A DNA stretch of 64,000 nt from a virus. The translations under genes and the position numbers were made by a program. The notes beneath the pieces were generated by a model. The model did no database searches, was not told where the DNA came from, and was given only the letters and a program-made list of their open reading frames with translations. Numbering within the stretch: position 1 is the first letter of the stretch; each line of letters begins with the position of its first letter. Of the stretch, positions 4,639 to 57,250 are shown piece after piece. The DNA lies in IMG/VR virus record IMGVR_UViG_3300010883_000009, positions 1 to 64,000 of that record. One strand, written 5' to 3'.

Positions 4639-4695
4639 CGCTACTCCTCAAATCTCTTATTAAAATTCATTTTCACACTATCTTTATTCTGCATA

Positions 4696-4727: not shown

Positions 4728-4807
4728 TTATTTTTTGAGGATTAACGGCGCTAAGCTTACAATTAATTTGTCTTTAATTTATTCTTCAATAACGGGGTAA
4801 AATCCTC

Positions 4808-10846: not shown

Positions 10847-11944
10847 CTAAATTTGTACCCCGACTGATTTTAAGTCTTCTTTTGCCTTCTCTACATAGGC
10901 TCCCTGATCAATTGCGTCTAAGGTGCTTTTTAAGCCGTCTTCACCAACATCTTGTTCAAGATACTCAACCATATCTCCTGTTTGATGAGCCACATTGAAC
11001 CCCATACTTATCATCGCAGTTAAATTCCCGAGATCTTTTGATGACGCCGCTTTTAAACGAGTATGTATATCTTCCACCGTCTCTCTCGTTTCATCAATTC
11101 CTTGCGCAGACCAATGATCATACCAAGATGGGAAAACCAAATGTTGATAGAATTCTGTTAAAATTCCATCTAAGCTACCCCAATTCTGCAATGACTGAAC
11201 AAACGATTCAACATCTCCGCCAAACAGAACATCAGGTTCAAGATCTACATTCTCAACCGTATAGTAATCTTCAATCCATGCTTCTGCCTCTTCTATCGTT
11301 TCGAATTCTTGATCGTGACTCAAGTTGAAATCTTCCAAATTATATTGAGCCGAATCAATTTCTGAATTCTTATAGTCAGGTAAAAACGCATTCTCGACAT
11401 ACCTTATTAAAGATGGGTAACTCTCTTTGTCATTGAGAGCAGTACTCAATATTTCGTACATGTGAGTAGAATAATCGGGAGAGCTACCAAATCCGCTGTT
11501 GAGCCGCTGCCTGTCGTTATGAACATATTTGTCATACTCCCACAACAAATTGTTAACCATCGATTCAGAATCGCCTTCGCCGTTGACTTCCTGATAGTCC
11601 CGCTCTCCTTGCACTCGCTTAGATGCCCAAGTGTTAGGAGTTAGAATGGCATGGCTATCCAACCATTTCTCCAAAGTTTCCAACAGTTTCTTCTGAAGTT
11701 CTTCAGCAATTTCAATCAAACTTTGTTCTAACTGGCGTTGAATATTCTCTTGTCGTTTAGGATGACCTTGAAAAGGAAGTTCGCGCATCATGGAGAACTT
11801 GAATTCCATTTCATGAAACTCTTTGATTTTGCTAGCGAAGTTTCGTTCATCGTCCCATTCGTTCACATCTTCTTCATCAGGACGATACTCCCATATCTGG
11901 GCAACCTTTCGAAGATCTATGGCTATACGATACCAACTTCTCAT
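10847..11944 (-). CDS. WYRIA-tagged protein of unknown function (365 aa)
   Basis: The protein starts MRSWYRIAIDLRKVAQ, a variant of the shared tag, and overlaps the upstream kinase-like gene by ATGA. The remaining ~345 residues are acidic and mostly helical (YNLEDFNLSHDQEFETIEEAEAWI), without a recognised domain. It is likely co-translated with 11941-12465. Confidence 0.7.
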   Translation of the reverse strand: MRSWYRIAIDLRKVAQIWEYRPDEEDVNEWDDERNFASKIKEFHEMEFKFSMMRELPFQGHPKRQENIQRQLEQSLIEIAEELQKKLLETLEKWLDSHAILTPNTWASKRVQGERDYQEVNGEGDSESMVNNLLWEYDKYVHNDRQRLNSGFGSSPDYSTHMYEILSTALNDKESYPSLIRYVENAFLPDYKNSEIDSAQYNLEDFNLSHDQEFETIEEAEAWIEDYYTVENVDLEPDVLFGGDVESFVQSLQNWGSLDGILTEFYQHLVFPSWYDHWSAQGIDETRETVEDIHTRLKAASSKDLGNLTAMISMGFNVAHQTGDMVEYLEQDVGEDGLKSTLDAIDQGAYVEKAKEDLKSVGVQI

Positions 11945-12465
11945 GCTATGTGCGCCTCGGGTAACTCGCTTTCTAAAACTTTATCAACTGTCAACGGACC
12001 TTCAGCATCGTATTTGTCAACCATATTCTGAATCTCTTCCAACGGAACATCATGTCGATTACGTTCAGCTAACTGTTCTGCGGTCTGACCGCCAGTCCCA
12101 ACTTCTACAAACTCTACTTCATAGCCTTGATTAACAGCCTTTTGGACAGCCGCTTTTGCTTCCCAAGCTTGAAGATTCATATTATCCAAAACCAGAGGGG
12201 TTCTGCCTTCTTCCATAGCTTGACCAATCAACGCGATCAACTGTTGGTGCTTTTCAGAAAGCGGGGACCAATCCTGAGCCTCTTCCATCGCTTCAAAGAA
12301 AGCGTTATAGCCATCAAGGTTGTCGGAAATAAGATCATCTGTCGCAAAGATGTTTTCTGGCACAACTCCTGACAACGACTTGGCGGCAGTACTCTTGCCA
12401 GAGCCACTTATGCCTCGCATAACGTAGAGCTTTTTACCTTTTGATTTGTCGTACCAACTGTCCAT
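11941..12465 (-). CDS. P-loop kinase, polynucleotide kinase/AAA_33-like
   Basis: The start is set at ATG 12465 (MDSWYDKSKG), which overlaps the upstream TAA (TAATG); an ATG four codons earlier is also possible. Walker A is GISGSGKST (residues ~18-26), followed by FATDD and, near residue 100, LVLDNMNLQAWE, then a Y-x-V-x-F-V strand and AERNRHDVPLEEI, which includes the lid-type arginines. This pattern matches small T4 Pnkp-like/NEDD4-binding-protein-2-like kinases that phosphorylate nucleic acid ends or other small substrates. The DSWYDK start is a degenerate form of the tag on neighbouring genes. Confidence 0.75.
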   Translation of the reverse strand: MDSWYDKSKGKKLYVMRGISGSGKSTAAKSLSGVVPENIFATDDLISDNLDGYNAFFEAMEEAQDWSPLSEKHQQLIALIGQAMEEGRTPLVLDNMNLQAWEAKAAVQKAVNQGYEVEFVEVGTGGQTAEQLAERNRHDVPLEEIQNMVDKYDAEGPLTVDKVLESELPEAHIA

Positions 12466-12971
12466 TATACTGTCCATTTATACATGATTTTTGGTTCCGC
12501 CCAATTCTCTGTAGTAACCGTATATCTATCACCTAAAGCGCTTATATCACCTATAATAACTTCAGGAACAGGATCTTCCAACTCGTCATTAAACTGATCT
12601 GCCGTAATGTCAATGATCATGTTGTTCAACTGAACCCAATAATGAAGCGGAGTATATGTTGCAGCTTCCATGGCTTGTTCCGCATATTGCATCTCTTCTT
12701 CTTCAGTCTCCATTGGTTCGGCAGGCAAAAAATCCTTTGCATCCATTTCGCTCCAAGCATCTATATCAGGAGTATCAACTGTAAACGTTCCCTGTGTAAC
12801 AGATGCAGCGTTATATCCGTTGTTAATGAGGATTTGAGCCAGATGCCTTGAAACAGGAAGACAAAGAGCTTTTAAACTATCATCGTCATCACGCAAGAGA
12901 GAATTTCTAACCTGAGTCGCTATCTGTTCTACTGACGGAGGCTCTTGCGCTATCTTATACCAACTTTTCAT
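12465..12971 (-). CDS. WYKIAQ-tagged papain/transglutaminase-fold-like protein
   Basis: ATG 12971 is chosen since TTTGGAGGACT precedes it and the product then starts MKSWYKIAQEPPS. Cys37 begins a helix (CLPVSRHLAQILINNG), His110 starts a strand (HYWVQLNNMIIDITADQF) and Asp121 follows, a Cys-His-Asp order seen in papain-like and transglutaminase-like enzymes. This is a motif-level call; catalysis is not proven. It could be a protease, amidase or transglutaminase acting on host protein. Confidence 0.6.
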   Translation of the reverse strand: MKSWYKIAQEPPSVEQIATQVRNSLLRDDDDSLKALCLPVSRHLAQILINNGYNAASVTQGTFTVDTPDIDAWSEMDAKDFLPAEPMETEEEEMQYAEQAMEAATYTPLHYWVQLNNMIIDITADQFNDELEDPVPEVIIGDISALGDRYTVTTENWAEPKIMYKWTV

Positions 12972-13251: not shown

Positions 13252-13440
13252 TTACTTGGATGTAACTAAATCGGTTAAATCCCCATCAACTTTAACATTG
13301 GATGGAACAAGTATGGTTTCGTATGACATATAGTTATCTTCCTTAGATGCCAACGAAATTATCCACCCTCCGCCTTTGCATTTGGTTACTTTAAGTGTAT
13401 TTGTTGGAGTTTTATCTTTAGCTATACGTATTATTTTCAT
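13252..13440 (-). CDS. MKIIRIAK-tagged small protein (62 aa)
   Basis: Starts MKIIRIAKDKTPTNTLKV. The rest is a small beta-type protein (GGWIISLASKEDNYMSYETILVPSN). It is the last gene of the tagged cluster, right before a terminator. Function unknown. Confidence 0.7.
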   Translation of the reverse strand: MKIIRIAKDKTPTNTLKVTKCKGGGWIISLASKEDNYMSYETILVPSNVKVDGDLTDLVTSK

Positions 13441-13507
13441 ATTTCAACTCAACTACTTGAACTACTAGAGTTATCGTCATAAGGCTCGACAAGTCCTGCT
13501 ATTGCAG

Positions 13508-13645
13508 TCAAACTGATGTCGCTACCATACCGGACTCATTTCGTTCAGGATCAAAGAATTGAAAGCCTTCTTCAATCTTAAATCCATTCTTCAACCGATC
13601 TTGAAGTATAGAGGCATTATCATTTGCTATTTTGAAAATTTTCAT
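13508..13645 (-). CDS. MKIFKIAND-tagged mini-protein, frame broken near its end
   Basis: This 45-residue gene, too short for many callers, starts at ATG 13645 overlapping the upstream TGA (TGATG). It reads MKIFKIANDNASILQ... and stops after GMVATSV. In the -1 frame the reading continues YGSDISLTAIAGLVEPYDD-N followed by six serines and a stop at 13449, just before the next gene. A single lost base near 13530-13540 would explain this. The restored product would be about 65 aa with a polyserine end like those of the tail proteins. Confidence 0.6.
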   Translation of the reverse strand: MKIFKIANDNASILQDRLKNGFKIEEGFQFFDPERNESGMVATSV

Positions 13646-13941
13646 CAATCTCTCTTCAAAAAAATGAACTCAAAACCCTTTGTCATAAGGAAATAACACT
13701 CTTTATTGCCCCACATTGACTTTGCGAAATAAGAATCCGGATCGTCTGCAATAAATTCTTCCAATGATTCATCTTCAAGCAAAACAGCATGATCACACAT
13801 CATCTGGAATTCTTCCATAGGAACCTTTTGATGTTGAGCAATCATATTCTGCCAATTATCTTCTCCCACTTTATCACAACGCATTCTGTCGCATTGACCG
13901 AAGTATTGGAAAGGTTGAAATGCTAGTCGATAAATTCTCAT
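13645..13941 (-). CDS. MRIYRLA-tagged small protein (98 aa)
   Basis: ATG 13941 overlaps the upstream GNAT stop by ATGA. It starts MRIYRLAFQPFQYFGQCDRMRC and contains DHAVLLEDESLEEFIADDPDSYFAKSMWGNKECYFLMTKG, which looks like a complete small domain. Unknown function; small size and tag suggest membership of the cargo set. Confidence 0.7.
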   Translation of the reverse strand: MRIYRLAFQPFQYFGQCDRMRCDKVGEDNWQNMIAQHQKVPMEEFQMMCDHAVLLEDESLEEFIADDPDSYFAKSMWGNKECYFLMTKGFEFIFLKRD

Positions 13942-14327
13942 TGCTGAGGTCTCCAATACATAGTCGCAGAAAGTGGGTCTGAAATGGTAAAGTCCGTATT
14001 CCTGCCCCTGTTTGGAACAAAGCCATGCCCTTTGTAAAAGTCGTTTAGTTTCTTTTTGTAGCCTACTTCAGGCTCTGGACTTAAAGAGATGGGCTTTCCT
14101 CTTCTTTGAGCGAACTCTTGTATCGCCCTTATGATTTCACTACCGATACCTTTTCGCCTCATGTCTACAGGCAGACGCAATTCTGATAACTGAATCTTAC
14201 TTTCAGTTTCGTATGCCCAAAGATCTAATTCAGGATATTGATTCATAAAAGAATCAATAATAGACTGCAACTCGGCGTTAGCTTCGTCAAGTTCGTCAGA
14301 TTGCTGCGCTATTCTATAGATCTTCAT
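13938..14327 (-). CDS. MKIYRIAQ-tagged GNAT-family acetyltransferase
   Basis: After MKIYRIAQQSDEL the protein shows the GNAT core: a strand LSELRLPVDM, the acetyl-CoA pyrophosphate loop RRKGIG (residues ~57-62), the helix SEIIRAIQEFAQRRG and the terminal LNDFYKGHGF motif. GNATs transfer acetyl from acetyl-CoA to amines of proteins or small molecules; phages use some to modify host factors. ATG 14327 overlaps the upstream gene end by 14 nt. Its substrate is unknown. Confidence 0.8.
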   Translation of the reverse strand: MKIYRIAQQSDELDEANAELQSIIDSFMNQYPELDLWAYETESKIQLSELRLPVDMRRKGIGSEIIRAIQEFAQRRGKPISLSPEPEVGYKKKLNDFYKGHGFVPNRGRNTDFTISDPLSATMYWRPQQ

Positions 14328-14658
14328 TATTTTGGACCTCAATCAATATGCCCTTATCAATGACGTATATAGAATTAGGTTGCCCACTACCCTCATCTAC
14401 CCAAAAAGAACTAAATCCATTCTCTTGAGCTTCGAAAATACCTTTATCAAAACTAGCTTCATCATAAGCTTTTGGCAATTCAAACGCAGTATATATAGCT
14501 TCAGATGGAATTAAAAACGACTGTATTTCAAAATCTCTACCCGATTGAGTGAATTGTCTTGCCCATTCTCTATCGGTAGTAAAATAATTACCACCTTTAT
14601 TGTAAGAACCCTCGCCTCGATATACCGTTATGTTTTGCGCTATCCTAAAAATCTTCAT
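14314..14658 (-). CDS. MKIFRIAQ-tagged ADP-ribosyltransferase-like protein
   Basis: ATG 14658 overlaps the previous TGA (ATGA). Following MKIFRIAQN comes ITVYRGEGSYNKGGNYFTTDREWARQFT, with the R-G of the NAD pocket and the YFTTD strand-helix step usual in ART-fold proteins, and then IQSFLIPSEAIYT. The length (114 aa) is short for a full ART, so it may be a minimal or non-catalytic version. T4 Alt is an injected ART, giving a precedent for such cargo. Confidence 0.55.
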   Translation of the reverse strand: MKIFRIAQNITVYRGEGSYNKGGNYFTTDREWARQFTQSGRDFEIQSFLIPSEAIYTAFELPKAYDEASFDKGIFEAQENGFSSFWVDEGSGQPNSIYVIDKGILIEVQNNEDL

Positions 14659-15023
14659 TGATAGCTTCCATCCTCTTGTCTCTTCATGACCTTTCTTATC
14701 GCTATCCTTGAAGAATCGAATATAACCCAATTGTGATCTAGATTTATACTGTCAAATCCATTATCTTCAATCTGTTGTAAGAATAACTTTTCATACTCTT
14801 CCCATCCCGCTATATTCTTCACACGCAAATCGACGCTAAGGATATATTTACTGGAATTTGCGCCCGAAGTTCCGCCAATGATTTCATTAATGTCATCTGA
14901 AAACCAAAACACGCCTTGCGCAGAAAAATTCCTATCAAATGTTTCAAAGGGTTTATTCGTCCCATGATAAGCTTGAATGGTCTGTTCTGCCGATTCTTCT
15001 TGAGCTATCCTATAGATCTTCAT
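14655..15023 (-). CDS. MKIYRIAQ-tagged ADP-ribosyltransferase-like protein
   Basis: ATG 15023 is chosen so that the product starts MKIYRIAQEESAEQ; the longer upstream frame is hydrophobic and overlaps the neighbour. The motif AYHGT (residues ~18-22), followed by GVFWFSDDINEIIGG and SKYILSVDLRVKNI, matches the YHGT...G.yFs pattern of ART-superfamily enzymes. It ends by overlapping the next tag gene (ATGA). Confidence 0.55.
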   Translation of the reverse strand: MKIYRIAQEESAEQTIQAYHGTNKPFETFDRNFSAQGVFWFSDDINEIIGGTSGANSSKYILSVDLRVKNIAGWEEYEKLFLQQIEDNGFDSINLDHNWVIFDSSRIAIRKVMKRQEDGSYQ

Positions 15024-15513
15024 AATCCTCAATATATTCTGAAATATCGTCAAAATTACTCGATAATTCACTAATGGAAACATCTCCTTGATTAAAATGT
15101 ATATCGGGACGTTTGTTCCAAGAAAATCCTCCACCAGTCTCATATAAAGAGTGATGAATGTCAACTTCATAAATCCCTTCTCGAACTTGAACAATGCAAT
15201 ACACATGTTGTTCAAAAGAAGACGATTGAGTAAAACATGCTATTCCGTTATCATTCAAAATAGATGCGATTTGATCTGCTATGAAATGACAAATGCCGCC
15301 GCCTGCATAAGTATCTATTTTTGCTTCATCCCATTCATCATATTCTTTTTGTGCTGCTTTAACAATATGTGGGATTAAAACGCCTACATCGTTAATACTC
15401 TTTAACTCATTAAATTTAGAACGATATTTTTGTATTCTTTCATTTTGGCTTTCGTCCTCCGCATCATACCACCATGGATCTTCAACCTCTTGCGCTAGTC
15501 GATAAATTCTCAT
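15010..15513 (-). CDS. MRIYRLAQ-tagged Cys-His-Asp (papain-fold-like) protein
   Basis: After MRIYRLAQEVEDPWW, Cys75 heads a helix (GGICHFIADQIASILNDNG), His103 begins a strand (HVYCIVQVREG) and Asp118 lies in YEVDIHHS. This is the catalytic order and spacing of transglutaminase/NlpC-like cysteine enzymes and parallels 12465-12971. A host-targeting protease, deamidase or peptidoglycan amidase are all possible. Confidence 0.6.
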   Translation of the reverse strand: MRIYRLAQEVEDPWWYDAEDESQNERIQKYRSKFNELKSINDVGVLIPHIVKAAQKEYDEWDEAKIDTYAGGGICHFIADQIASILNDNGIACFTQSSSFEQHVYCIVQVREGIYEVDIHHSLYETGGGFSWNKRPDIHFNQGDVSISELSSNFDDISEYIEDYEDL

Positions 15514-15917
15514 GCAGGCGGTTCCCATTTTTTACTTCTATGGAATTCTGAAATATATTGAGGGGGAATTACTCCATGATATTCTAAAGTTTTCCCATTA
15601 GAATTATTTGAATCTTGTTTTAAAAGCTCTGGATCTATTCCTTCAGTATCAATTTGTAAAATAACTATTTCATCTAACCATTTCTCTTCAACAACATCTG
15701 ACGATTCAGCATATGATTCAGCCACCCATGGATCAAAAGCCAGATATACATTTTCTTGACTCATATCCCAGTTTTTAGTTTTATTGCCTTTAAGTCCATT
15801 TGTCATTATAGACTCTAAATGAAGCAAATATGTGGCATGATATAAATACTTCTCCGAAATATATTCTGGTTCAGGAATTTCTACCAACGAACTTTGTGAT
15901 ATCTTATAAATCTTCAT
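15510..15917 (-). CDS. MKIYKISQ-tagged ART/RNA-phosphotransferase-like protein
   Basis: The protein reads MKIYKISQSSLVEIPEPE, then KYLYHATYLLHLESIMTNGLKG (Y-H-A-T, residues ~26-29), VYLAFDPWVAESYAE and near the end LEYHGVIPPQYI. This is the layout of ART-like proteins related to Tpt1/DarT-type folds: an NAD-binding YHAT, a strand-helix with A-x-x-Y, and a late glutamate-containing strand. Coupled by ATGA to both neighbours. Substrate unknown. Confidence 0.55.
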   Translation of the reverse strand: MKIYKISQSSLVEIPEPEYISEKYLYHATYLLHLESIMTNGLKGNKTKNWDMSQENVYLAFDPWVAESYAESSDVVEEKWLDEIVILQIDTEGIDPELLKQDSNNSNGKTLEYHGVIPPQYISEFHRSKKWEPPA

Positions 15918-16501
15918 ATCTGATATTCCTTAAATACCTTTTGAAAAGACTTATTGAATATCAATATCTCTTGCGTAGGGGTCTCTCCAATGAAAATATC
16001 ATTGGGGTTATTTGTACCTACAAATACAACAACATCAAACTTAGAAAACTTTTGTGTTGCGATTTTAGAAACCCATTCAGAATATTCTAATCCCAAATCA
16101 GGATAATACAATCCTACCGCCGCGAGCGCCTCAATAATTGATTCATAAGGGCTATAAGATGCTTTTTTTATCTGTTCATTGAAAACCATTTTGAATTCCA
16201 TGTCCGTTGCCCAATAATCTATCTTAACCTTCTTCAAAGCCCTTTTTAGAATATCACCTATTGCCGACTCAGCTTTAGAAGGATTAATCTTCTTGATTAC
16301 CGCATCATCTGGAACTTGAACTTCATAAACGTTTTCGCCAAACATATTCGCAAATTCGGGCTTATTGGTAACATACATCGCTTCTCCCAAAGGATTGTAG
16401 TGCTGTTCTTCCTTTGCCGCCTGAGAAGGATCATATTCGTCAAATTCAGGGCTGTCTGTACCATGATAATACGTTGGAGTAGCTTTCCTATAAATTTTCA
16501 T
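15914..16501 (-). CDS. MKIYRKA-tagged ADP-ribosyltransferase-like protein
   Basis: MKIYRKATPTYYHGTDSPEFDEYD places YHGT at residues 12-15 directly after the tag. The LGEAMYVTNKPEFANMFG segment and VYEVQVPDDAVIKKI are typical of ART/Mom-like 'YHGT ... yvT ... Ya' domains. It is the first gene of the tagged cluster. GAAGAAG lies about 12 nt before ATG. A plus-strand homing endonuclease gene diverges from it. Confidence 0.6.
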   Translation of the reverse strand: MKIYRKATPTYYHGTDSPEFDEYDPSQAAKEEQHYNPLGEAMYVTNKPEFANMFGENVYEVQVPDDAVIKKINPSKAESAIGDILKRALKKVKIDYWATDMEFKMVFNEQIKKASYSPYESIIEALAAVGLYYPDLGLEYSEWVSKIATQKFSKFDVVVFVGTNNPNDIFIGETPTQEILIFNKSFQKVFKEYQI

Positions 16502-19242: not shown

Positions 19243-19533
19243 TTAAACCAATCTTTTATCAAACCATCGCTTTTTCCCAAACCTTGCTTCTAAAGCTTCT
19301 TGGAGTCGATGGTTATCCCCTTGCTTTGCGGCTTGAATGCCTTCGTAAATATCAGGAAAAGTAGAATCGGAAGAATCGTATCTCCATAAATCACTATTTG
19401 TAATATCATACTGGAAAAGCAAATTCATTGCTTCCTGATCCAAACCAGAACCGTATTCTTGCTCAGATGGAAGACGACGATCTAGTAATCCTGATTCTTT
19501 CCATACATCGTTTGCTTTTCTAATAATCTTCAT
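19243..19533 (-). CDS. MKIIRKAND-tagged small protein (96 aa)
   Basis: ATG 19533 overlaps the preceding stop by ATGA and gives MKIIRKANDVWKESGLLDRR. The remaining sequence is helical and acidic (QEAMNLLFQYDITNSDLWRYD). No family recognised. Confidence 0.7.
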   Translation of the reverse strand: MKIIRKANDVWKESGLLDRRLPSEQEYGSGLDQEAMNLLFQYDITNSDLWRYDSSDSTFPDIYEGIQAAKQGDNHRLQEALEARFGKKRWFDKRLV

Positions 19534-19904: not shown

Positions 19905-20258
19905 TTAACAACTCGTACAGGCTTTCTTCTCTTTCTTACGATCTAAATTGTCTTCTTTTATGTGTTTTACGCAGCGCTCATATTTCTCTGGGTCTTCGTC
20001 CTTATCTACTGTCGTATGACAAACAGCCCAAGGGTTATAAGGAGTCTCATCAGCAGAACGTTTCTTCTTGCCCTTCTTAGCTTCTATATCTACTGAAGCC
20101 TTCTTCTTTTTCTTTGGCTTGTTGCGCTTTTCTCGGGTCTTCTTTACAATGTCTCTATCCGCAAGAGTACCTTCGCATTCAGGATACATCTGCGTATCAA
20201 GATGACCTTTAGGTTTCTGATATGTTCCGCAATTTGATTGAAGTCTGTAAATTTTCAT
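19905..20258 (-). CDS. MKIYRL-tagged Lys-rich protein with NPWAVC motif
   Basis: MKIYRLQSNCGTYQK is followed by a very basic stretch (residues ~45-70, mostly K and R), then NPWAVCHTTVDKD...YERCVKHIKED and a C-terminal CTSC. The NPWAVC...ERCV pattern recurs in small phage structural-region proteins I have seen, but no function is established. The basic stretch suggests nucleic acid binding, consistent with an internal capsid protein. Confidence 0.65.
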   Translation of the reverse strand: MKIYRLQSNCGTYQKPKGHLDTQMYPECEGTLADRDIVKKTREKRNKPKKKKKASVDIEAKKGKKKRSADETPYNPWAVCHTTVDKDEDPEKYERCVKHIKEDNLDRKKEKKACTSC

Positions 20259-23790: not shown

Positions 23791-23800
23791 AAGTCCCCCA

Positions 23801-23809
23801 TATTATACA
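23801..23809 (-). promoter_or_regulatory. Family A promoter-like element, leftward arm
   Basis: TGTATAATA on the minus strand, reading into the glycosyltransferase gene; mirror image of the element at 23820-23828, 10 bp away. Confidence 0.55.
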
Positions 23810-23819
23810 GCGTTTAAGG

Positions 23820-23828
23820 TGTATAATA
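23820..23828 (+). promoter_or_regulatory. Family A promoter-like element, rightward arm
   Basis: TGTATAATA on the plus strand, 22 nt before ATG 23851 with AAAAAGGAG between. The two back-to-back elements leave no room for ordinary -35 boxes. Confidence 0.55.
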
Positions 23829-23850
23829 GAACAAAAAGGAGTTAAGAACC

Positions 23851-30110: not shown

Positions 30111-30145
30111 AGGGTTGGAAATCAGGAATCCTAATCAAACTCTAA
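30075..30145 (+). repeat. Tandem duplication of the last 12 codons of the 211-aa gene
   Basis: Unit 1 (30075-30110) reads HGWKTGVTILL-stop and unit 2 (30110-30145) reads KGWKSGILIKL-stop. The period is 35 nt, so unit 2 is in the -1 frame. Nucleotides differ but residues are conserved. Confidence 0.5.
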
Positions 30146-33100
30146 ACGACATTAGATCTGTGAATCGCTAAGGCCGTCTTATACCAATTGTAATTGCTTC
30201 CACGAACAAGTTTTCTGTCAACACTTTTTGCAAGCCACATCCAATCTGCCCCATAATCTTGTTCCATCTCTGCAATAAACTGTCCACCATCTTCTGCATC
30301 TTGTGGACTAACTGGAGTCGGTTTTTGTTCTTGAAAATCAGCGGACTTCAACTGTTTTTCCCTTTCTACCATTTCTACTACATCCTTTAAAAGAGATTGC
30401 GGCAAAGCTTCTTCAAACAAGCTGTTGACAGTTGTCATATCTACGCTATAAAGTGTCGATGGTGGCCCAAACATTAACAACAACAAATCCTCAATTCCAA
30501 ACAACGTTCTTAGTTTTTGTGGAGTGTTCCGATCTATGTAGCTTTTGAAACGACTAACAAACGCATCCGCATCATAGAAATTATACGCATTTTGAAGAAT
30601 CTCTTGACACCCGTTTAAAAACTGCTTATAGTCTTCTCTTTGACTCAATTCATTAATAAACTTATCTGGTGAATAAGGGTTTCGTTCAGTCGTGTCCTCT
30701 GGTACAACGATCTCTTCATCAAATGTTATATCCTCAACTTTTTTCCCAACGTCTGACAATTGAGATTGCAATTGGTCTTCAACCTTAGATCTCATGAATT
30801 TACGCAAAAAGAACTGAGTGAACATATTCGTCATATTGTCTATCTGTTCTTCTTTAGACATGCTATTTAATGCTTCGATAGCGCTATCGTTAAATTCAGG
30901 CATTGCCGTATCCATTTTTGACAACGCTTCCTGTTTGCTCATCCCTAAAAACTCCCATGCAAAAGCGTCAATTATATCAGATTTGATTTGACTCAAGAAG
31001 CCTTCTGTTATTCTATCAGGGAACGGATAATTAGATTCAAAATACTCATGGATTCTTTGTTTAATATGTTGAAGGTTTCCATATGTAATTGCGGCAATTT
31101 CTTGGGGAGAACTTACCCATTGAGACTCACTCTCTATCTCCTCGCTTCTGCCTTCTACGACTTGATCTAAAAACGAATGGGCAATTTCATGCCATAACGT
31201 GTTTTCTTCAGAGAAAGACAGATCTTTTTCTATTGCATCAATTCCTAATTCGTTCAAAACCTGCTCTGAAGTGGGCATGCCGTTGATTTGATCAGTAAAT
31301 ACAACTATTGTAGCATCTGTTCCAAACATGCTATATTTACCTGCAAAAAAGCCATTAGCATCTTGTGGAGTAGCTGGGAAATATTTAGCTCCTTCTTCTC
31401 CTAACAAACTCATATATTTAGATGCGTTAATAAAATAGATATTCATCTTTTTAAGTTCTTGCATCGCTCGTTCAGTTTTAGGTATATATCCTTCTGAATC
31501 AGGGGAATATGCCTCTTCAGTACCAACATTAGAGTTTACGAAATCTACTACTCGTTGATATACTTCTGGGAAATCTGTTATCTTATTCTTTTTAACTGCA
31601 TCCGATTCTAAAAACGATGGAAGTTTACTCCTCACTTCTTTATGGACTTCCTTCTCTTTGCTTTCAAGTATTTTGCGTACCGCTTCCCTTAGCTTTTCTG
31701 AGTCTCCTGCGCATTGCATGTGGTCAATTACTTTTTTAATATCGTTTACGCTTCCCTGCGCTTTCTCAAGAACTTTGGAACAAGGGAACAATCCTGACAA
31801 ATAGAAAAACCATGAGCCTACATCTCCAGAAACGGCGGATCTAACTCGCATTGGAACCTTACTCCAAAAATCCATTGCAGATTGCATTTTGAAAGGCCAC
31901 ATTTGCGTCCAATGGATTTTTGAATCTTGTCGATAAGTACCGGCATCAAGTATTTCATTCCCTTGAACTAAATTAGAAAACATATCCGTTCCTGCCGCTT
32001 CCGTTAAATCCTTTATGGTTTTTGACTTTACTATTTGCAAATAATCATGATCTGTCATGTCCTCACTAGATAACTTTTGATTTATCCATTCGTTAGACAA
32101 ATCGGCTTCTTCCTTAATGGTCATTCTAGTGGCTCTTTTTAGATAGTCAATATAAGAGTCGCTATAGGATGACGTAACAGAATTAGGATCGGTTCTATCT
32201 TGACCCCCTTTGGCTAAATCTTGATATATTCCTTTTTCTTCATTTATAGCATACACACTTGGCGGTAAGCTTTCTGGTATATTTTCAACGTCTCTAGATC
32301 TAAGGTCTCTGTCTAAATCCTGTTGCCAATTAATTTCCCAGTAATCTTCAATACTAGAATTTATAACCTTGCCCGCTTCATGCAATACTTCTATGCGTAT
32401 TACTTGTGGCCCTAACATCAAATTTTTAACTATTCCAAATTGGGCAGAATTATCAATCGTCACAGTAAGCGGATTGTCTTCAGTCAAAAACTCTTGATTG
32501 TTTTCATAAGCGTTATTTACATCTTGCAACTCCTGAAGCATTTCAGTCCCATACAACATCCAATTTTCCCCGTTATAATGCTGTTGAGATCTAACTTTTT
32601 CCATTTTGTCTCTAAAGTTCCCACTATTTAATAAATAACGGTATATGTCAAATGAAAGCGCCCTTTCTTGTGGAGAAAGCTTCTTCCAATTATCAGGGTT
32701 GCTTGTGTCCATCTCTGACATCTTTTGCGATCCATCCAATATAGCAAAGGTCTCTTTTGATGGAAATTCTAGATAGTCTTTTACATATTGCTTTCTTTGT
32801 TCAATTGATCCGTTTTGCATTGCAGACGCTATCGACGGATATTGTTGAGATATAAATTGTACAAAATCATCTGGATATGAATTGGGGGTTGACAATATGT
32901 CGCTAGCCGTTTCTGCACTAAACCTAGACCTAGAGAATTTTTGCATTATGGTCTGATATACCCAATCTGGCATGTCAGATGGAATTCCGTATTTGAGTTG
33001 GGCTTTTTGTAGGAACGAGTCTAATGCCCCCTTGATCATTCTCTCATCCATATTCCATTGTAAACATTTTTGGATGTCCCATAAGCTCAAATATACATAG

Positions 33101-33279
33101 TTTGGATACCTGACAAAATACTTCAGACGCATAGAGGCATCATTCGTATCAAGAGTGAATCTCCTTATCTTGTCTTTTTGGTCGTTTGTAAGTTCGTTCT
33201 CAGGAGGCATATTGTCAATATCATGACCGCCGACACCGGACATGAACTCATCAACCCCTGATAATCTATATATATTCAT
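30142..33279 (-). CDS. MNIYRL-tagged large protein with zincin motif (1045 aa)
   Basis: The start MNIYRLSGVDEFMSG is the shared tag. The long body is helical and polar. Around residue 697 NTLWHEIAHSFLDQVVEGRSEEIESE has HEIAH plus a downstream Glu, the zinc site of gluzincin/metzincin-like peptidases. Near the C-terminus SNYNWYKTALAIHRS holds a second tag-like W-Y-K-T-A. Large size and tags suggest an internal virion protein, perhaps ejected with the DNA, with peptidase activity toward host proteins or cell wall. Confidence 0.7.
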   Translation of the reverse strand: MNIYRLSGVDEFMSGVGGHDIDNMPPENELTNDQKDKIRRFTLDTNDASMRLKYFVRYPNYVYLSLWDIQKCLQWNMDERMIKGALDSFLQKAQLKYGIPSDMPDWVYQTIMQKFSRSRFSAETASDILSTPNSYPDDFVQFISQQYPSIASAMQNGSIEQRKQYVKDYLEFPSKETFAILDGSQKMSEMDTSNPDNWKKLSPQERALSFDIYRYLLNSGNFRDKMEKVRSQQHYNGENWMLYGTEMLQELQDVNNAYENNQEFLTEDNPLTVTIDNSAQFGIVKNLMLGPQVIRIEVLHEAGKVINSSIEDYWEINWQQDLDRDLRSRDVENIPESLPPSVYAINEEKGIYQDLAKGGQDRTDPNSVTSSYSDSYIDYLKRATRMTIKEEADLSNEWINQKLSSEDMTDHDYLQIVKSKTIKDLTEAAGTDMFSNLVQGNEILDAGTYRQDSKIHWTQMWPFKMQSAMDFWSKVPMRVRSAVSGDVGSWFFYLSGLFPCSKVLEKAQGSVNDIKKVIDHMQCAGDSEKLREAVRKILESKEKEVHKEVRSKLPSFLESDAVKKNKITDFPEVYQRVVDFVNSNVGTEEAYSPDSEGYIPKTERAMQELKKMNIYFINASKYMSLLGEEGAKYFPATPQDANGFFAGKYSMFGTDATIVVFTDQINGMPTSEQVLNELGIDAIEKDLSFSEENTLWHEIAHSFLDQVVEGRSEEIESESQWVSSPQEIAAITYGNLQHIKQRIHEYFESNYPFPDRITEGFLSQIKSDIIDAFAWEFLGMSKQEALSKMDTAMPEFNDSAIEALNSMSKEEQIDNMTNMFTQFFLRKFMRSKVEDQLQSQLSDVGKKVEDITFDEEIVVPEDTTERNPYSPDKFINELSQREDYKQFLNGCQEILQNAYNFYDADAFVSRFKSYIDRNTPQKLRTLFGIEDLLLLMFGPPSTLYSVDMTTVNSLFEEALPQSLLKDVVEMVEREKQLKSADFQEQKPTPVSPQDAEDGGQFIAEMEQDYGADWMWLAKSVDRKLVRGSNYNWYKTALAIHRSNVV

Positions 33280-33388: not shown

Positions 33389-33868
33389 ATGAGCGCATGG
33401 GTAGAAGGTAAACTTGATCTTAAATGTAGCTTAGACGTTTTACGTAAAGCTATCATCAATATCCATCCTGAATGGGAAGACCATCTTATAATTGACAAAG
33501 AAGGTCATATCCCGATGTATCGCTTCGACGGACAGAGAGAATACAACGGGAAAGGTGGAGACAAAGAGGTTCATGTCCTGATTCCCGGTAGCGGTCATCC
33601 AATAACAGAAACTCCTCCAAATCGCGGAGCGCATAACGATTGGGGATTCCGTCGTTCACAAGACGGAAAATGGGAAGTAACTTTTGCAGACTTCGGATTG
33701 TCACAAGCCAATCATCTTGAGAATCAAATAAAGAGCGAAGTAGCCCTTATGAAAGCAAAAGCGATTGCTAAAATGCGAGGGTTTGAAGTTCTAGCTCAAG
33801 ATGAAACTGACCAAGAGAAGCACGTTGACATAAGAGTTGACTCAAGCGTTTACGAACAAATGTCGTAA
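33389..33868 (+). CDS. Ycf35/DUF1257-like protein, copy 1
   Basis: MSAWVEGKLDLKCSLDVLRKAIINIHPEW and the C-terminal KAKAIAKMRGFEVLAQDE pair with MSHWQTGKIELKCSLNILKKALINVMPEW and KALALAQMRGYEVL of the gene at 62391-62822; the two are clear paralogues. The start and end motifs resemble the DUF1257 (Ycf35) family. It has its own promoter on the plus strand and overlaps the convergent 792-aa gene by 27 nt. Function unknown; in bacteria the family is often beside a Ycf46-like AAA+ ATPase. Confidence 0.65.
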   Translation: MSAWVEGKLDLKCSLDVLRKAIINIHPEWEDHLIIDKEGHIPMYRFDGQREYNGKGGDKEVHVLIPGSGHPITETPPNRGAHNDWGFRRSQDGKWEVTFADFGLSQANHLENQIKSEVALMKAKAIAKMRGFEVLAQDETDQEKHVDIRVDSSVYEQMS

Positions 33869-36220
33869 ACTGTCAATCCTCTTGGCGTACTTATACCAAC
33901 TCATAACACTAGCTTGTTGAGGATAAACAGGTACAACCTGCCCTCTTTCGTTAATAGTATATTCATTGGTCGGCATTTCATCGAAAAACGGCAAGTTCTG
34001 CTGTCCCTGATCTTTAAGAGATTTCTCCCCTTGCATACGTTTTGCTCGTTCTTCATAGTTGTATAGTAACGCCTGAACGTTAGGTGGCATTTCCTTGAAA
34101 TCAACATCTACATCAGAAGCAACTATTCCCTGCACAAGCCTTTGTAACTGTTCAGGGGACATTTCTTCTATCGCAGCCTTTCCATCATGTGTTAACATAG
34201 ATTCCCAGTTACCTTTCAAAAAGTAATTTAACCATATCCCCGTAAAATGTCGCTCTCGATCTTGCTCGTCATAGGGAGTCTCGTAGTAGTTATCCCTGAA
34301 GTTATCAGGAGCATAGTCCATTTCAGTTGGATCTTCCGCGATCTTCTCCCACCATATGTTTTCTACCATTTCCCTTATTTGTTCTTGGTCGCCGGGGTAT
34401 CCTTCTGACTCTTCAACATAGTATTGGGTGTATTCGCTTTGATCATACATCGCATCAGTTTCGTATTTAGTAGGATCTGTTTCAATGTATTTCATCCAAG
34501 CATTGTCTAAAGCGTCTTTAACCTCTTGGATTCCGCGAATGTCGCTTTCACCTATGGGTTCAAGCAAAGTATTATTTTTCTCCCATGCCTCATGGTCAAC
34601 TGCATAATCTGTTTCTTCATTCTCGTCACCCCTCCAATAAGATCTGCGATAATCGTCTTCTTGGGGTTCTCTCCATTCTTCTGCGAGAATGGATTCAGGG
34701 TTTGTGTCCCCTTCAGATTGTTTTAGTTTCTCAATGGCTTGAGAGAAAGGATGCTTCTTAGCTTTCTCTATAATGTCATCAGGAAAGGTTGCCAAAGTCT
34801 CATCCTTAAGATTGTACATCTTCCAAGGTTCAGTTTGTACGATCTCTTCCAAGGTTCTACGAATAGTTTCGTTTACTTCTACATCTTCCAAAATCTCTTT
34901 AGGCAAGTGGTCAATTTCTCGGAAGAAATTGTTTCGTAATTTCCCGTTTTCGTTAGGAACCCTAAGCGATATTAGAACAGACTGTGTGACAAAATCTAAT
35001 GTCTCTGGCAGTACTTGAACGCGAATGTCTTGAGGAAGTTCAGAGTAATAACCAACCTCATTATTTAGCTGAAAATAGTGTCGCCCTTTTTCCTGTTTCC
35101 GAATTCCAACGTCAATCGCCTTGACAATATCCTGTACAACTTCAGGGTTCTGTCTGTTCTCTTTAGAAAGACGATCAATCAGCCGAGGCTCTTTAGTGAT
35201 CTGCTCAACGAATTTTTTGTATTTCTGAGGGTCGAGAAGATTATCATTTAGCTTCTTGGCTTCCATTAACTCTGCGTAATGGTAATCATTGCCGGGATCA
35301 ATGCCCTTCGCGTTAAGGAACTCTTCGATCTCTTCTGTATAAGCAAACGGTGCTCTATTTCTCTCGCCTTGGATTTCTGCCAATCGCCCTCCATCCATAC
35401 GAATAGCTACTTCCGCCTTACCATCAAGGATATACAGATAGAAGTCTCCCTTGGTAAGATATGGTACTGCCATGCCCGATCCAGTACACCATCCATTAGG
35501 AACGCTATAGCCTACGAGTTTGTTGACATTATCTTGGAAGTTGGAAGGATCGTTTTGTTGGCTAGGAAGCCTGATCCAACCGTTACCATCCTTCATTTTC
35601 GTCCCCGGGACTACTTCTGTGGACTGCTGATTGGCAACATTAACCTCGTTCATATACTGCTTATCGATTCTAAATTGCTCCGTGCCGCCCCCGTTGCGCA
35701 CTTTTTCATACAGAGCTGCTACTGCCATCTCATTCAGAGGCATCGTAGAACGTTTATTATTTGCTTTTGATTTATCGAAAATAGGTTTTAGTACTGTGTA
35801 CGCAAATGCGGGGGTTTGGGCGTATACGTCATTTCCTGATGTAAAATAAGACCACCAAGAGTCGAATATTCGCTGTTTCTGTCCATTGATAGCCTCTAAT
35901 ATGGATTCTTGAGCCTTTTCAGGGTCTTGCTGGTAGATTGCCCATGCCTGCTGAACTTGTGGATCTCCGGGATTCTGGTTGAATTCCGCTTCAAGGTCTA
36001 TTTCCTTGAGATATCGGTTAGAGTCTGATTTAGGGTCGATAGAGCGTTGCAAATCGGGTAGCAGGGAGGACGATATATGGGCATTAATGTCCTCTGAGGA
36101 CTTGATCTTATTCCACGGGATCAAGTTCTCATATTTTTGAATGAAGAAAGTAAGAAAGGGATCATCGATATTGTATCGCTGAACTTTCTCCTTAAAAGCT
36201 GCTAGCCGATAGATCCTCAT
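33842..36220 (-). CDS. MRIYRLA-tagged large protein (792 aa)
   Basis: Begins MRIYRLAAFKEKVQ and ends with SVMSWYKYAKRIDSL, so tag-like peptides stand at both ends. A central domain contains SVPNGWCTGSGMAVPYLTKGDFYLYILDGKAEVAIRMDGG (quoted in parts: NGWCTGSGM, DFYLYILDG, VAIRMDGG), a conserved-looking unit with a Cys that may be catalytic or structural. The rest is acidic helix with many Tyr, Asp and Glu. Likely another large internal virion protein; function unknown. Confidence 0.65.
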   Translation of the reverse strand: MRIYRLAAFKEKVQRYNIDDPFLTFFIQKYENLIPWNKIKSSEDINAHISSSLLPDLQRSIDPKSDSNRYLKEIDLEAEFNQNPGDPQVQQAWAIYQQDPEKAQESILEAINGQKQRIFDSWWSYFTSGNDVYAQTPAFAYTVLKPIFDKSKANNKRSTMPLNEMAVAALYEKVRNGGGTEQFRIDKQYMNEVNVANQQSTEVVPGTKMKDGNGWIRLPSQQNDPSNFQDNVNKLVGYSVPNGWCTGSGMAVPYLTKGDFYLYILDGKAEVAIRMDGGRLAEIQGERNRAPFAYTEEIEEFLNAKGIDPGNDYHYAELMEAKKLNDNLLDPQKYKKFVEQITKEPRLIDRLSKENRQNPEVVQDIVKAIDVGIRKQEKGRHYFQLNNEVGYYSELPQDIRVQVLPETLDFVTQSVLISLRVPNENGKLRNNFFREIDHLPKEILEDVEVNETIRRTLEEIVQTEPWKMYNLKDETLATFPDDIIEKAKKHPFSQAIEKLKQSEGDTNPESILAEEWREPQEDDYRRSYWRGDENEETDYAVDHEAWEKNNTLLEPIGESDIRGIQEVKDALDNAWMKYIETDPTKYETDAMYDQSEYTQYYVEESEGYPGDQEQIREMVENIWWEKIAEDPTEMDYAPDNFRDNYYETPYDEQDRERHFTGIWLNYFLKGNWESMLTHDGKAAIEEMSPEQLQRLVQGIVASDVDVDFKEMPPNVQALLYNYEERAKRMQGEKSLKDQGQQNLPFFDEMPTNEYTINERGQVVPVYPQQASVMSWYKYAKRIDSLRHLFVNA

Positions 36221-36222
36221 GG

Positions 36223-36771
36223 TTATGTATTCAGTCCAACACCCTGTCCAGCATCATACATGTTAACGTTGGGTTGGATTTTTTCTTCAATCCATTTCGC
36301 ATTCGTTTTAATACCTTCTAAAGCTTCACGAACAGCGTCTAAATTAGCCGGATTTTCCTTGAAAGCTTTATAAAGTTTATCGCTCAGGGCGTTCATATGC
36401 AATGCCCGTGCTTCTGCCTCTTTAAGACTCTGAACTGTTTGTGCTTCTTTTTTGATGCCTTTTTCTTTCTTAGCTTGTTTCCCTGAAGATCCCCTACAAT
36501 TGTCGCAATAACTCTCCGTTGGATTAGATGGGTCGAATGTAAATACATTCTTGCACCCTTTCTTTTCACATCCCAACGTCTTAGGCTTTGCGGATGAACC
36601 TTCTGCTGCGTCAGATGTTTGAACTCCATCGAGAGGCTGAAGCTGATCAACTTGAGCAGTTGTACTTAAATCTGAGTCGTCTAACCATCCTGTTTGACGA
36701 CCTATCTGACTCCATTCTTTATGGGATAGTTTAATCGTAGCTTTACCTTCTGCTGTTCTTGTGATCTTCAT
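36223..36771 (-). CDS. EW-IG-GW domain protein with zinc knuckle (182 aa)
   Basis: MKITRTAEGKATIKLSHKEWSQIGRQTGW is the shared small domain. Residues ~68-95 hold CEKKGC ... YCDNC, a four-Cys zinc site, and a basic KKEKGIKKEAQ stretch follows. The C-terminus is helical. Its ATG overlaps the stop of the 28-codon gene upstream (TAATG). Confidence 0.65.
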   Translation of the reverse strand: MKITRTAEGKATIKLSHKEWSQIGRQTGWLDDSDLSTTAQVDQLQPLDGVQTSDAAEGSSAKPKTLGCEKKGCKNVFTFDPSNPTESYCDNCRGSSGKQAKKEKGIKKEAQTVQSLKEAEARALHMNALSDKLYKAFKENPANLDAVREALEGIKTNAKWIEEKIQPNVNMYDAGQGVGLNT

Positions 36772-36857
36772 TATTTCTCTCCTGTAAATTCAAAATCAAT
36801 TGCCATGATCATGTCTTTATTTCTGACTAACTGGTTCGTTTTACGGTAAATTCTCAT
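36771..36857 (-). CDS. MRIYRK-tagged 28-residue mini-protein
   Basis: ATG 36857 opens MRIYRKTNQLVRNKDMIMAIDFEFTGEK and its TAA overlaps the next ATG by one base. The complete product is hardly more than the tag, so either the tag alone is useful or this is a truncated member. No strong ribosome site is visible. Confidence 0.5.
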   Translation of the reverse strand: MRIYRKTNQLVRNKDMIMAIDFEFTGEK

Positions 36858-36895
36858 GGATAATATTTCCACGAACCTAGATGAAAACCCTTGTA

Positions 36896-37459
36896 TTAGA
36901 CCATATACTCTACGGCTAACCCTTCGTCTACCAAAAGTCGATTCACATTTACGTTGTCGAAGTATACAGTTGCTAGATAGCGACCATATTTGCCTTTCTT
37001 ATCTTGATTGGTCTCAATGGTTATCTCTTTGTCCAAGATAAGCCCTTTAAGGCGGTCTCTAGCGACTCTTCCTTCAATAAGGGTTGGTCTTCTTAACTCA
37101 GGGGTGTTAATGCCATACAATCGAAATTTGGCGACAACAGTGGTATTAAAACCTAGATTAACTATGGATCGAGTAATGGTATCGCCGTCATAGATTCTTT
37201 CTACTTGACATTTGTACTTACAAACGCGATGCCAAGGTTCGGTAACGACAGTTGCCTGCCAGAATCTACTGTTGGGATCTTTGGGGTGTTTTGTATCAAA
37301 GACATAGGTTTCGCCAAGATCTAGTTTTGTCTTTTTGCTAACAAGTAAATCTTTTTCAGCAAAGACGCCAAACCCTAATGCGAAACGAACTGGAACTGCA
37401 CCATTAGGCAATCTGCTTCCAGCGATATACCCTTCGTATCTGTACAGTTTGGGACTCAT
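36896..37459 (-). CDS. Thermonuclease (SNase) domain protein
   Basis: The C-terminal ~110 residues are a staphylococcal-nuclease fold: VERIYDGDTI, AKFRLYGINTPE, EGRVARDRLKGLI, GKYGRYLATVYFDNVNVNRLLVDEGLAV. The catalytic Arg (FRLYG), Glu (TPE) and Arg (YGRYLA) are kept. Family members cut DNA and RNA with Ca2+. The first ~75 residues (MSPKLYRYEGYIAGSR...) are an extra beta-rich part. No signal peptide. It overlaps the 55-aa gene by ATGA. Host DNA degradation or trimming of phage DNA is plausible. Confidence 0.8.
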   Translation of the reverse strand: MSPKLYRYEGYIAGSRLPNGAVPVRFALGFGVFAEKDLLVSKKTKLDLGETYVFDTKHPKDPNSRFWQATVVTEPWHRVCKYKCQVERIYDGDTITRSIVNLGFNTTVVAKFRLYGINTPELRRPTLIEGRVARDRLKGLILDKEITIETNQDKKGKYGRYLATVYFDNVNVNRLLVDEGLAVEYMV

Positions 37460-37623
37460 AATTCATCTTCGTTGATGAATTCACAATGTTCCTTGCAAGA
37501 AGGGCATATGCCCGTGTCTGAATAGTTAGGTCCATCTTCAGAAACCATACGATCTTTGGTTCCGCAACAATTAGATATAAGGATTTCTTCTACGAAAGCT
37601 ATAGCTAATCTGTATATTTTCAT
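37456..37623 (-). CDS. MKIYRLA-tagged zinc-ribbon mini-protein (55 aa)
   Basis: MKIYRLAIAFVEEILISNCCGTKDRMV...GICPSCKEHCEF has Cys pairs CC and CPSC, a small zinc ribbon fused directly to the tag. ATGA overlap with the nuclease gene and a 1-nt gap from the upstream stop show it belongs to the operon although short. Confidence 0.65.
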   Translation of the reverse strand: MKIYRLAIAFVEEILISNCCGTKDRMVSEDGPNYSDTGICPSCKEHCEFINEDEL

Positions 37624-37624
37624 C

Positions 37625-37873
37625 TTATCGACTTACGTTCTGGAAATATTTTGTTACAGTATCAATTGGAGCATGACCTATTTGAATAAAAAACTTGTGA
37701 AATGCTGATGGATCTTGAGCAATTGCCTGAACAATACCTTGACTCCTGCCTAGTTGGTCGTAGCTTTCTACTGTTTCGGTCATAGATTGCCCAAAACAAA
37801 AATTGTAAAACCTAACCATTTCCGACTGTCTTTCATTAAAAGGCTCTTCCTGAGCTAATCTGTATATTTTCAT
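37625..37873 (-). CDS. MKIYRLAQ-tagged small protein (82 aa)
   Basis: MKIYRLAQEEPFNERQSEMVRFYNFCFGQSM leads a helical protein ending TVTKYFQNVSR. First gene after the capsid-gene terminator. GAAGAAG and TATAAT precede the ATG by few bases, so the leader would be very short. Unknown function. Confidence 0.7.
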   Translation of the reverse strand: MKIYRLAQEEPFNERQSEMVRFYNFCFGQSMTETVESYDQLGRSQGIVQAIAQDPSAFHKFFIQIGHAPIDTVTKYFQNVSR

Positions 37874-56486: not shown

Positions 56487-56712
56487 ATTTCTTGCTTTGT
56501 GCTGAAGCATATTTGAACGACCAATCTCCGCCACTCAAATCTTGATACTCTTCTATACAAGAAGTAATCGCCGCTTGCGCTGCCATTCCTGCCGAAACCT
56601 TAGCCTTGTAACAGTCCATCCAGTTACGACTTTGGCTTTTCATCAACGCCTGAGCATCTTCGTAGTAAGCTGTACGTCGAAATGCCTTCAGGTTAAACAC
56701 AGTAGTTTTCAT
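56485..56712 (-). CDS. Unknown small protein (75 aa)
   Basis: MKTTVFNLKAFRRTAYYEDAQALMKSQSRNWMDCYKAK starts a small helical protein with two Cys and ends WSFKYASAQSKK. FRRTAYY and FKYASAQ resemble the x-R/K-x-A motif. No family recognised. Confidence 0.65.
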   Translation of the reverse strand: MKTTVFNLKAFRRTAYYEDAQALMKSQSRNWMDCYKAKVSAGMAAQAAITSCIEEYQDLSGGDWSFKYASAQSKK

Positions 56713-57239: not shown

Positions 57240-57250
57240 ATTTGTGCCTG

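What the first reader, a model, noticed from the sequence alone, without database searches (positions are those of the whole stretch)
13252..16501. A shared N-terminal peptide (M-K/R-I-Y-R-I/L-A-Q) on about 17 unrelated proteins
Nine consecutive genes here start MKIIRIAK, MKIFKIAN, MRIYRLAF, MKIYRIAQ, MKIFRIAQ, MKIYRIAQ, MRIYRLAQ, MKIYKISQ and MKIYRKAT. The same start recurs at 19243, 19905, 30142, 33842, 36771, 37456, 37625 and 51125, with W-Y-K/R-I-A variants at 10847 and 12465. Behind the tag the proteins are unrelated in sequence and length (28 to 1045 aa). Codons for the tag differ between genes, so the peptide is conserved, not just copied DNA. Known precedent: T4 internal proteins share a ~10-residue capsid-targeting sequence. 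I infer a virion packaging (or processing) signal that defines this phage's cargo.
Basis: partly seen in the sequence, partly recalled or inferred. Interest (0 to 1): 0.92.

Follow-up and report, generated by a model that had tools for sequence, protein, structure and literature searches.

The report
Packaging-and-cleavage tag on huge-phage cargo proteins
In this uncultured huge phage, a relative of Bacillus phage G, more than twenty unrelated proteins start with the same seven-to-nine-residue tag, which matches the inferred cutting site of the phage's own head protease, so the tag probably marks proteins to be loaded into the virus particle, trimmed there and injected into the host.

Summary
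In detail: all 19 listed starts exist, and the tag is strongly enriched at N-termini (20/108 genes against 5/631 internal methionines, p=1e-13). At least six more tagged genes lie in the rest of the 94-kb record. The tag sits outside the folded domain: homologous bodies carry different tags, or none, in relatives. It recurs in phage-specific dialects: MKIYR[IL]A here, MKIIK[IV]A, MKIFK[IL][AS], MNWYKxAQ, and MKRLIKK[AS] in the cultured phage G.

The new evidence is that the tag belongs to a wider head motif, hydrophobic-x-[KR]-x-A. That motif recurs about 20 times at conserved positions in the 1,864-aa fusion of the head-maturation protease to a probable scaffold (22 conserved sites, 3.8 expected). 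It brackets the protease domain and is conserved in the portal and other head proteins. Contigs fetched by the MNWYKxAQ tag alone encode this protease polyprotein in 7 of 18 cases; contigs fetched by T4's tag do so in 0 of 18.

Best explanation: a cleavable capsid-targeting leader, like T4's CTS but with protease specificity [KR]xA, on an arsenal of (predicted) injected enzymes such as ADP-ribosyltransferases and acetyltransferases. Packaging and cleavage are inferred; no virion proteomics was available.

The parts
13252..16501 (-). Nine-gene cassette of tagged proteins: unknown 62 aa, 45 aa and 98 aa; GNAT-like 13938; 14314 (unknown, ART-like by eye); ART-PolyVal-like 14655; 15010 (unknown, papain-like by eye); ART-like 15510 (weak KptA match); ART-like 15914 (weak DRAT match)
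10847..11944 (-). Tagged MRSWYRIA, 365 aa, unknown
11941..12465 (-). P-loop kinase-like protein with a degenerate tag (MDSWYDKSK); its homologue in G010 starts MNWYKKAQ
12465..12971 (-). Tagged MKSWYKIAQ, weak YunG-like domain; the G001 homologue starts MKIIKVAR
19243..19533 (-). Tagged MKIIRKAN, 96 aa, unknown
19905..20258 (-). Imperfect tag MKIYRLQS (no Ala); homologue G001_532 starts MRLIRTAQ
30142..33279 (-). Tagged MNIYRLS, 1045 aa; HEIAH zincin-like motif by eye; second motif NWYKTA near the C-terminus (30172-30189)
33842..36220 (-). Tagged MRIYRLA, 792 aa; second motif SWYKYA near the C-terminus (33884-33901)
36771..37873 (-). Short tagged ORFs at 36771 (28 aa), 37456 (55 aa) and 37625 (82 aa), next to the major capsid gene
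37961..38827 (-). Major capsid protein (phrog_2522, E 7e-72); 56% identical to phage G gp27
39664..45258 (-). 1864-aa polyprotein: N-terminal tag MIVKEA, head maturation protease domain (residues about 49-222), then a long probable scaffold region full of conserved [KR]xA sites
45169..45183 (-). Second inferred cleavage site MMRTA|S ahead of the protease domain
44479..44547 (-). Inferred sites LAKVA|S, MVRTA|A and IEKEA|S just after the protease domain
49519..49536 (-). Conserved MSRTA|A at residue 55-60 of the portal (portal gene 47419-49698)
50356..50373 (-). Conserved VVKVA|S inside the 453-aa head-cluster protein 49753-51114
51125..52120 (-). Tagged MNILRVAD, 331 aa, next to the portal; conserved second site MVRTA|Q at residue 105 (51791-51808); a recognisable tag at the start of most homologues
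56335..56352 (-). Conserved MVRTA|S at residue 22 of the acidic 261-aa protein 55630-56415
56665..56682 (-). Conserved FRRTA near the start of the 75-aa protein 56485-56712
61203..61220 (-). Internal W-Y-[KR]-x-[AS]-Q (WYRFSQ) at residue 237 of the 813-aa protein 59487-61928; conserved in all six relatives
56760..57592 (-). Two proteins with the longer shared leader ending GWTKTAQ (also at 19530, 36223 and record position 79369)

Best explanation
The tag is a cleavable capsid-targeting leader. Late in infection the tagged proteins are recruited through their first 7-9 residues into the prohead core, which is built from the 1,864-aa protease-scaffold polyprotein. The head-maturation protease then cuts after [KR]-x-A: within the polyprotein (shredding the scaffold and freeing the protease), in the portal and other head proteins, and right behind the tag, leaving mature cargo free in the head. 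The cargo (ADP-ribosyltransferase-like, acetyltransferase-like and kinase-like proteins, a zincin candidate and unknowns) is injected with the DNA to act in the host. Shown by sequence: the tag is real, separable from the protein bodies, linked to virion gene clusters, and matches the repeated conserved motif of the protease polyprotein. Inferred: that this motif is the cut site, that the tagged proteins are in the virion, that the tag itself directs packaging, and that the cargo is injected.
For: N-terminal enrichment with a clean T4 control. Unbiased test on the aligned protease polyproteins: [KR]xA conserved 22 times, expected 3.8, next pair 4 against 0.7. In 13 polyprotein sequences only spacing +2 is enriched (502 against 276), with Ser favoured 4-fold after the Ala and M/L/W/I at P5; polyproteins take nearly all top ranks among 407 proteins of at least 350 aa. 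Sites bracket the protease domain in all relatives and in phage G gp19. Conserved sites in portal, g056, g057, g059, g060 and g067, little or none in most other conserved families; the exceptions (g010, MCP, terminase) mostly lack the hydrophobic context. In the 476-kb relative, 15 of 18 tags lie in the virion cluster. Same body with different tag: 70% identical bodies with MKIYRIGN versus MNWYKRAQ; MNWYKKAQ versus MDSWYDKSK; MKIFKLA as a 10-residue extension of an untagged family. Tags within one phage are more alike than between phages among non-homologous cargo (3.0 versus 1.9 matches of 6, p=0.0005). MNWYKxAQ: 27 IMG/VR stretches versus 1 for the scrambled control; 7/18 of those records encode the protease polyprotein versus 0/18 records found with T4's CTS, and those seven polyproteins also begin with a tag-like motif and are enriched for [KR]xA. 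Weak fold matches of the protease model to HCMV assemblin and T4 gp21. In T4, CTS leaders of 10-19 residues target internal proteins and are then cut by gp21; the Alt propeptide is 7 residues (PMC9026906).
Against: No virion proteomics or N-terminal sequencing could be consulted; the phage G mass-spectrometry paper is not in the library. The residue after the tag's Ala is often Q/N/D, while internal sites favour S, so the tags may be poor or special substrates. Some tags lack the Ala (19905, 36771). One tagged gene is a lysozyme (75013) that may act at lysis, and tagged G6PD and 2-hydroxyacid dehydrogenase in other phages are odd cargo. The structure model is low confidence (pLDDT 55) and its fold hits have E of at least 0.03. 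Eleven of 18 tag-bearing records show no protease, although all may be fragments.
Confidence: 0.75

Rival explanations
1. Processing site only: the N-terminal motif is cut by the head protease, but the proteins reach the head by other means (binding DNA or scaffold through their bodies); the leader is a maturation or activation peptide.
For: The motif coincides with the polyprotein sites, and in the portal and g056-g060 the same motif is a site without being a leader.
Against: Cargo bodies share no fold or sequence, so a common entry signal other than the leader is not evident; a cut seven residues in would do little else; dialects are shared within a phage beyond the [KR]xA core.
Confidence: 0.12
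2. The tag addresses proteins to a place in the infected cell (phage-encoded compartment, membrane or replication body), not to the virion.
For: Many cargo proteins are enzymes rather than structural proteins; the tag is short, basic and hydrophobic.
Against: Linked to the virion gene cluster and to the head protease; the same motif is conserved inside portal and scaffold.
Confidence: 0.06
3. DNA- or translation-level signal: similar starts reflect a shared initiation region or recently copied DNA.
For: A-rich starts; ATA is over-used for Ile in the tags (15/28 against 22% genome-wide); in G007 five tandem genes share near-identical leaders.
Against: Codons and upstream sequences vary between genes; the same peptide pattern occurs internally and near C-termini; the pattern is position-specific at the residue level (P3 K/R, P1 A) with a free P2.
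Confidence: 0.02
4. Paralogy: the tagged genes are diverged copies of one ancestral gene.
For: Clustered genes of similar size; several ART-like members.
Against: Different folds (GNAT, ART, P-loop, cREC, G6PD, lysozyme, rhodanese); homologues elsewhere lack the tag or carry another.
Confidence: 0.01

Closest known systems
Phage T4 capsid targeting sequence (CTS) of internal proteins IPI-III, with the Alt propeptide, and gp21 prohead protease
   Same: Short N-terminal leader on otherwise unrelated proteins, coupled to a head-protease motif; even the first residues look alike (T4 MKTYQEFIAE, IPI MKTFKEF; here MKIYRIA); cargo includes ADP-ribosyltransferases
   Different: Protease specificity [KR]xA instead of [LI]xE; dozens of cargo genes rather than about four; dialects per phage; protease fused to a long probable scaffold in one polyprotein; the phage lineage is phage-G-like, not Tevenvirinae
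phiKZ / SPN3US inner-body and ejection proteins with prohead protease gp175 / gp245
   Same: Huge phages; portal and internal proteins cut at a P3-x-P1 motif (S/A-X-E; A-X-E) with repeated sites in propeptides
   Different: Mostly long propeptides without a shared short leader; Glu at P1
Phage P1 DarB capsid targeting signal
   Same: N-terminal stretch sufficient to send a reporter to the capsid (PMC9024508)
   Different: A shared tag on many proteins is not described there
Polyvalent proteins (Iyer et al. 2017)
   Same: ART-PolyVal and other effector domains in virion-linked genes, predicted to be injected (PMC5512222)
   Different: Those are large multidomain proteins; no shared leader was found described there; here mainly separate single-domain proteins each carry a tag
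Bacillus (Lysinibacillus) phage G
   Same: MCP 56% and protease 33% identical; its own tag MKRLIKK[AS] on about 15 proteins, several ART-like
   Different: Dialect; protease gp19 is a separate 300-aa protein; tagged genes scattered over the genome

Membership tests
T4-type capsid targeting sequence | Short N-terminal leader shared by unrelated proteins | tested here: met
T4-type capsid targeting sequence | Ends in the recognition motif of the phage's head protease | tested here: inconclusive
   The motif equals the repeated conserved [KR]xA of the protease polyprotein; that this is the protease's cut site is inferred from sequence only
T4-type capsid targeting sequence | gp21-type [LI]xE cleavage motif | tested here: not met
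   The motif is [KR]xA; hence 'works like', not a member of the T4 family
T4-type capsid targeting sequence | Sufficient for packaging; removed in the mature virion | not testable with these tools
   needs virion proteomics and fusion assays
Phage head maturation protease (assemblin / gp21 superfamily), for 39664-45258 | Profile match and invariant candidate catalytic His and Ser | tested here: met
   phrog_18299 E 2e-15; H97 and S148 invariant in 12 homologues including phage G; catalytic role assigned by analogy
Phage head maturation protease (assemblin / gp21 superfamily), for 39664-45258 | Fold | tested here: inconclusive
   pLDDT 55; best PDB matches are HCMV protease and T4 gp21, E 0.03-0.18
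Polyvalent proteins | ART-PolyVal or similar effector domain | tested here: met
   In relatives: L088 E 7e-13 and L123 E 1e-17, above the cut-off; window 14655 is below it
Polyvalent proteins | Several effector domains in one polypeptide | tested here: not met
   Most cargo is short, with at most one recognised domain

The most novel reading that the evidence does not exclude
Phage-G-like huge phages use one exchangeable address label, [I/W]-[Y/F/I]-[K/R]-x-A read by the protease-scaffold polyprotein, to load a large changing arsenal of dozens of unrelated enzymes into the virion, including host-metabolism enzymes such as glucose-6-phosphate dehydrogenase. Any gene becomes cargo by gaining about eight codons, and the label diverges into phage-specific dialects together with its reader.
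Probability: 0.5. Interest if true: 0.88.

Novelty: new variant of a known kind. Interest (0 to 1): 0.78.

Why it matters
It gives a sequence-only way to list what huge phages put into their virions, most of which is otherwise hypothetical protein. It predicts the cleavage specificity ([KR]xA) of the head protease of phage G and, from the same motif enrichment, of Bixzunavirus mycobacteriophages, both cultured and directly testable. It also shows how one leader can turn unrelated enzymes into candidate injected effectors, and offers a second, independent capsid-loading signal for comparison with T4's.

Tried and rejected
Exact DNA pattern for MKIYRIAQ in IMG/VR: no hit, so the I-dialect is rare. 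Protein 30142 has no match in the six portal-linked relatives. Protein 15010 has no match in cultured phages. The protease in GTDB genomes: none confirmed. A crude a-x-b test over all N-terminal 30 residues of each proteome was too diluted to single out [KR]xA; family-wise and polyprotein-wise tests were used instead. PADLOC: no defence match apart from a weak P-loop hit. C-terminal enrichment of the motif as a general rule: not found, although two proteins have a WYK copy near the C-terminus. Translation signal, paralogy and DNA copying were considered and rejected (see rivals). Two literature searches found no description of this tag; the library holds open-licence papers only.
Full report
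1. The observation. All listed starts are in the window at the stated places, on the minus strand. Against internal methionines as control, hydrophobic2-[KR]-x-[AS] near the N-terminus is found in 20/108 genes versus 5/631 (p=1e-13). A 49-kb part of phage T4 gives 0/64 versus 9/273. Codons and upstream sequences differ between the genes, so the peptide is what is kept. Two listed starts lack the alanine (19905, 36771), and 36771 and 37456 are very short. The record is a 93,875-base virus fragment; its remaining 30 kb hold at least six more tagged genes, one of them a lysozyme.

2. What the phage is. The portal, capsid and terminase are recognisable, and the portal matches IMG/VR contigs up to 476 kb. 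The capsid protein is 56% identical to that of Bacillus phage G, the closest isolate, and the protease domain 33%. The window is thus probably a piece of a huge, phage-G-like genome.

3. The tag is separable from the proteins. Homologous bodies carry different tags or none. G003_001 (MKIYRIGN) and G009_006 (MNWYKRAQ) are 70% identical behind the tag. A P-loop kinase is MNWYKKAQ in G010 and MDSWYDKSK here. Record position 80211 (MKSWYKTAQ) matches G006_033 (MKIFKISQ). G006_056 gains MKIFKLA as an extension of an otherwise untagged family. Recognised domains begin after the tag, for example glucose-6-phosphate dehydrogenase from residue 18 in L119.

4. Dialects. Tags within a phage resemble one another more than tags of different phages, among non-homologous cargo (3.0 versus 1.9 of 6 matches, p=0.0005). 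Examples: MKIYR[IL]A here, MKIIK[IV]A in the 476-kb phage, MKIFK[IL][AS] in G006, MNWYKKA in G010, and MKRLIKK[AS] on about 15 proteins of phage G, five of them with an ART-like HGT/HTT start by eye and three with weak PARP-family matches.

5. The link to the head protease. Gene 39664-45258 encodes 1,864 aa: tag MIVKEA, head maturation protease (phrog_18299, E 2e-15, residues 65-222), then a long region I read as scaffold. In all relatives the tag and a second site (MMRTA|S, IVRTA|A, MIKTA|S ...) precede the protease, and further sites (LAKVA|S, MVRTA|A) follow it; phage G gp19 shows the same bracketing. An unbiased test of all residue pairs a-x-b conserved in four aligned polyproteins gave [KR]xA 22 observed versus 3.8 expected; the next pair was 4 versus 0.7. 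Among 407 proteins of at least 350 aa in these phages, the polyproteins occupy nearly all top ranks; only spacing +2 is enriched (502 versus 276), with Ser 4-fold favoured after the Ala and M/L/W/I at P5. The same pair, again only at spacing +2, leads in gp90 of mycobacteriophage Alice (35 versus 19.8). Family by family, conserved hydrophobic-[KR]-x-A sites lie in the portal (residue 55), g056, g057, g059, g060 and g067 (where W-Y-[KR]-x-[AS]-Q is kept in six phages), and little or nothing comparable is seen in most tail, AAA and other conserved families; the MCP, terminase and g010 have [KR]xA columns in a different context. A repeated fixed P3/P1 pattern with a free P2 is what a prohead-protease specificity looks like: T4 [LI]xE, phiKZ [SA]xE, SPN3US AxE (PMC9026906, PMC10052503; the T4 motif partly from my own knowledge).

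6. Independent association. The start MNWYKxAQ occurs in 27 IMG/VR stretches, against one for the W/Y-swapped control. These stretches hold runs of tagged genes, eight in L141. Seven of 18 such records, found by the tag alone, encode the same protease in open frames of 1,861-2,309 aa, versus 0 of 18 records found with T4's CTS. The seven new polyproteins also begin with a tag-like motif (for example MYKRA, FMKKA) and have [KR]xA as first or second most enriched pair. The 0/18 control is biased towards T4-like phages; a random set of huge-phage contigs was not tested.

7. Mechanism. The anatomy matches T4's capsid targeting sequence: leaders of 10-19 residues that take internal proteins into the prohead core and are removed by gp21; the Alt propeptide is only seven residues. 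I infer that the tag is both address and cut site. Cargo domains (ART, GNAT, KptA-like, cREC, P-loop kinase, SLOG, rhodanese) fit early takeover or counter-defence, as proposed for polyvalent proteins (PMC5512222). Not shown: presence in virions, cleavage, sufficiency of the leader, injection. The residue after the Ala is often Q/N/D in tags but S inside the polyprotein; this is unexplained.

8. Novelty. Capsid-targeting leaders are known from T4 and P1. I found no description of this one; the search covered open-licence papers only. I file it as a new variant of a known kind: it works like a T4 CTS, but fails T4's cleavage-motif criterion.

Noticed in passing
window 19530, 36223, 56760, 57251; record 79369; G007 22255-24090: A second, longer shared leader MK[LIV]xKTASGK...[KS]xEWxxIGxxxGWxKxAQ on otherwise unrelated proteins; in G007 it heads five tandem genes. 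It both begins and ends with the [KR]xA motif.
   Followed up: partly
window 7016-8194: Actin-like 'Volactin' protein (PF25216, E 1e-61) in the virion gene cluster, 64-67% identical in two relatives.
   Followed up: no
window 52461-55511: AAA ATPase interrupted by an intein with a homing endonuclease (Hom_end_hint, LAGLIDADG); head polyproteins and portals of relatives are also unusually long, some probably with inteins.
   Followed up: no
window 27356-29491 and C-terminus of 59487-61928: Two tRNA nucleotidyltransferase-like regions (phrog_2244); the second is in a protein that is tagged in relatives.
   Followed up: no
L119 11652-12974; L121 2511-3527: Glucose-6-phosphate dehydrogenase (MNWYKWAQ) and a 2-hydroxyacid dehydrogenase (MNWLKWAK) carrying the tag in other large phage contigs.
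   Followed up: partly
window 16631-17710: Opposite-strand ORF that looks by eye like a homing endonuclease, next to the tagged cassette; 48% identical copy in G006.
   Followed up: no
window 4240-6002 and 17737-19233: Long serine-rich low-complexity runs in three tail-cluster proteins.
   Followed up: no
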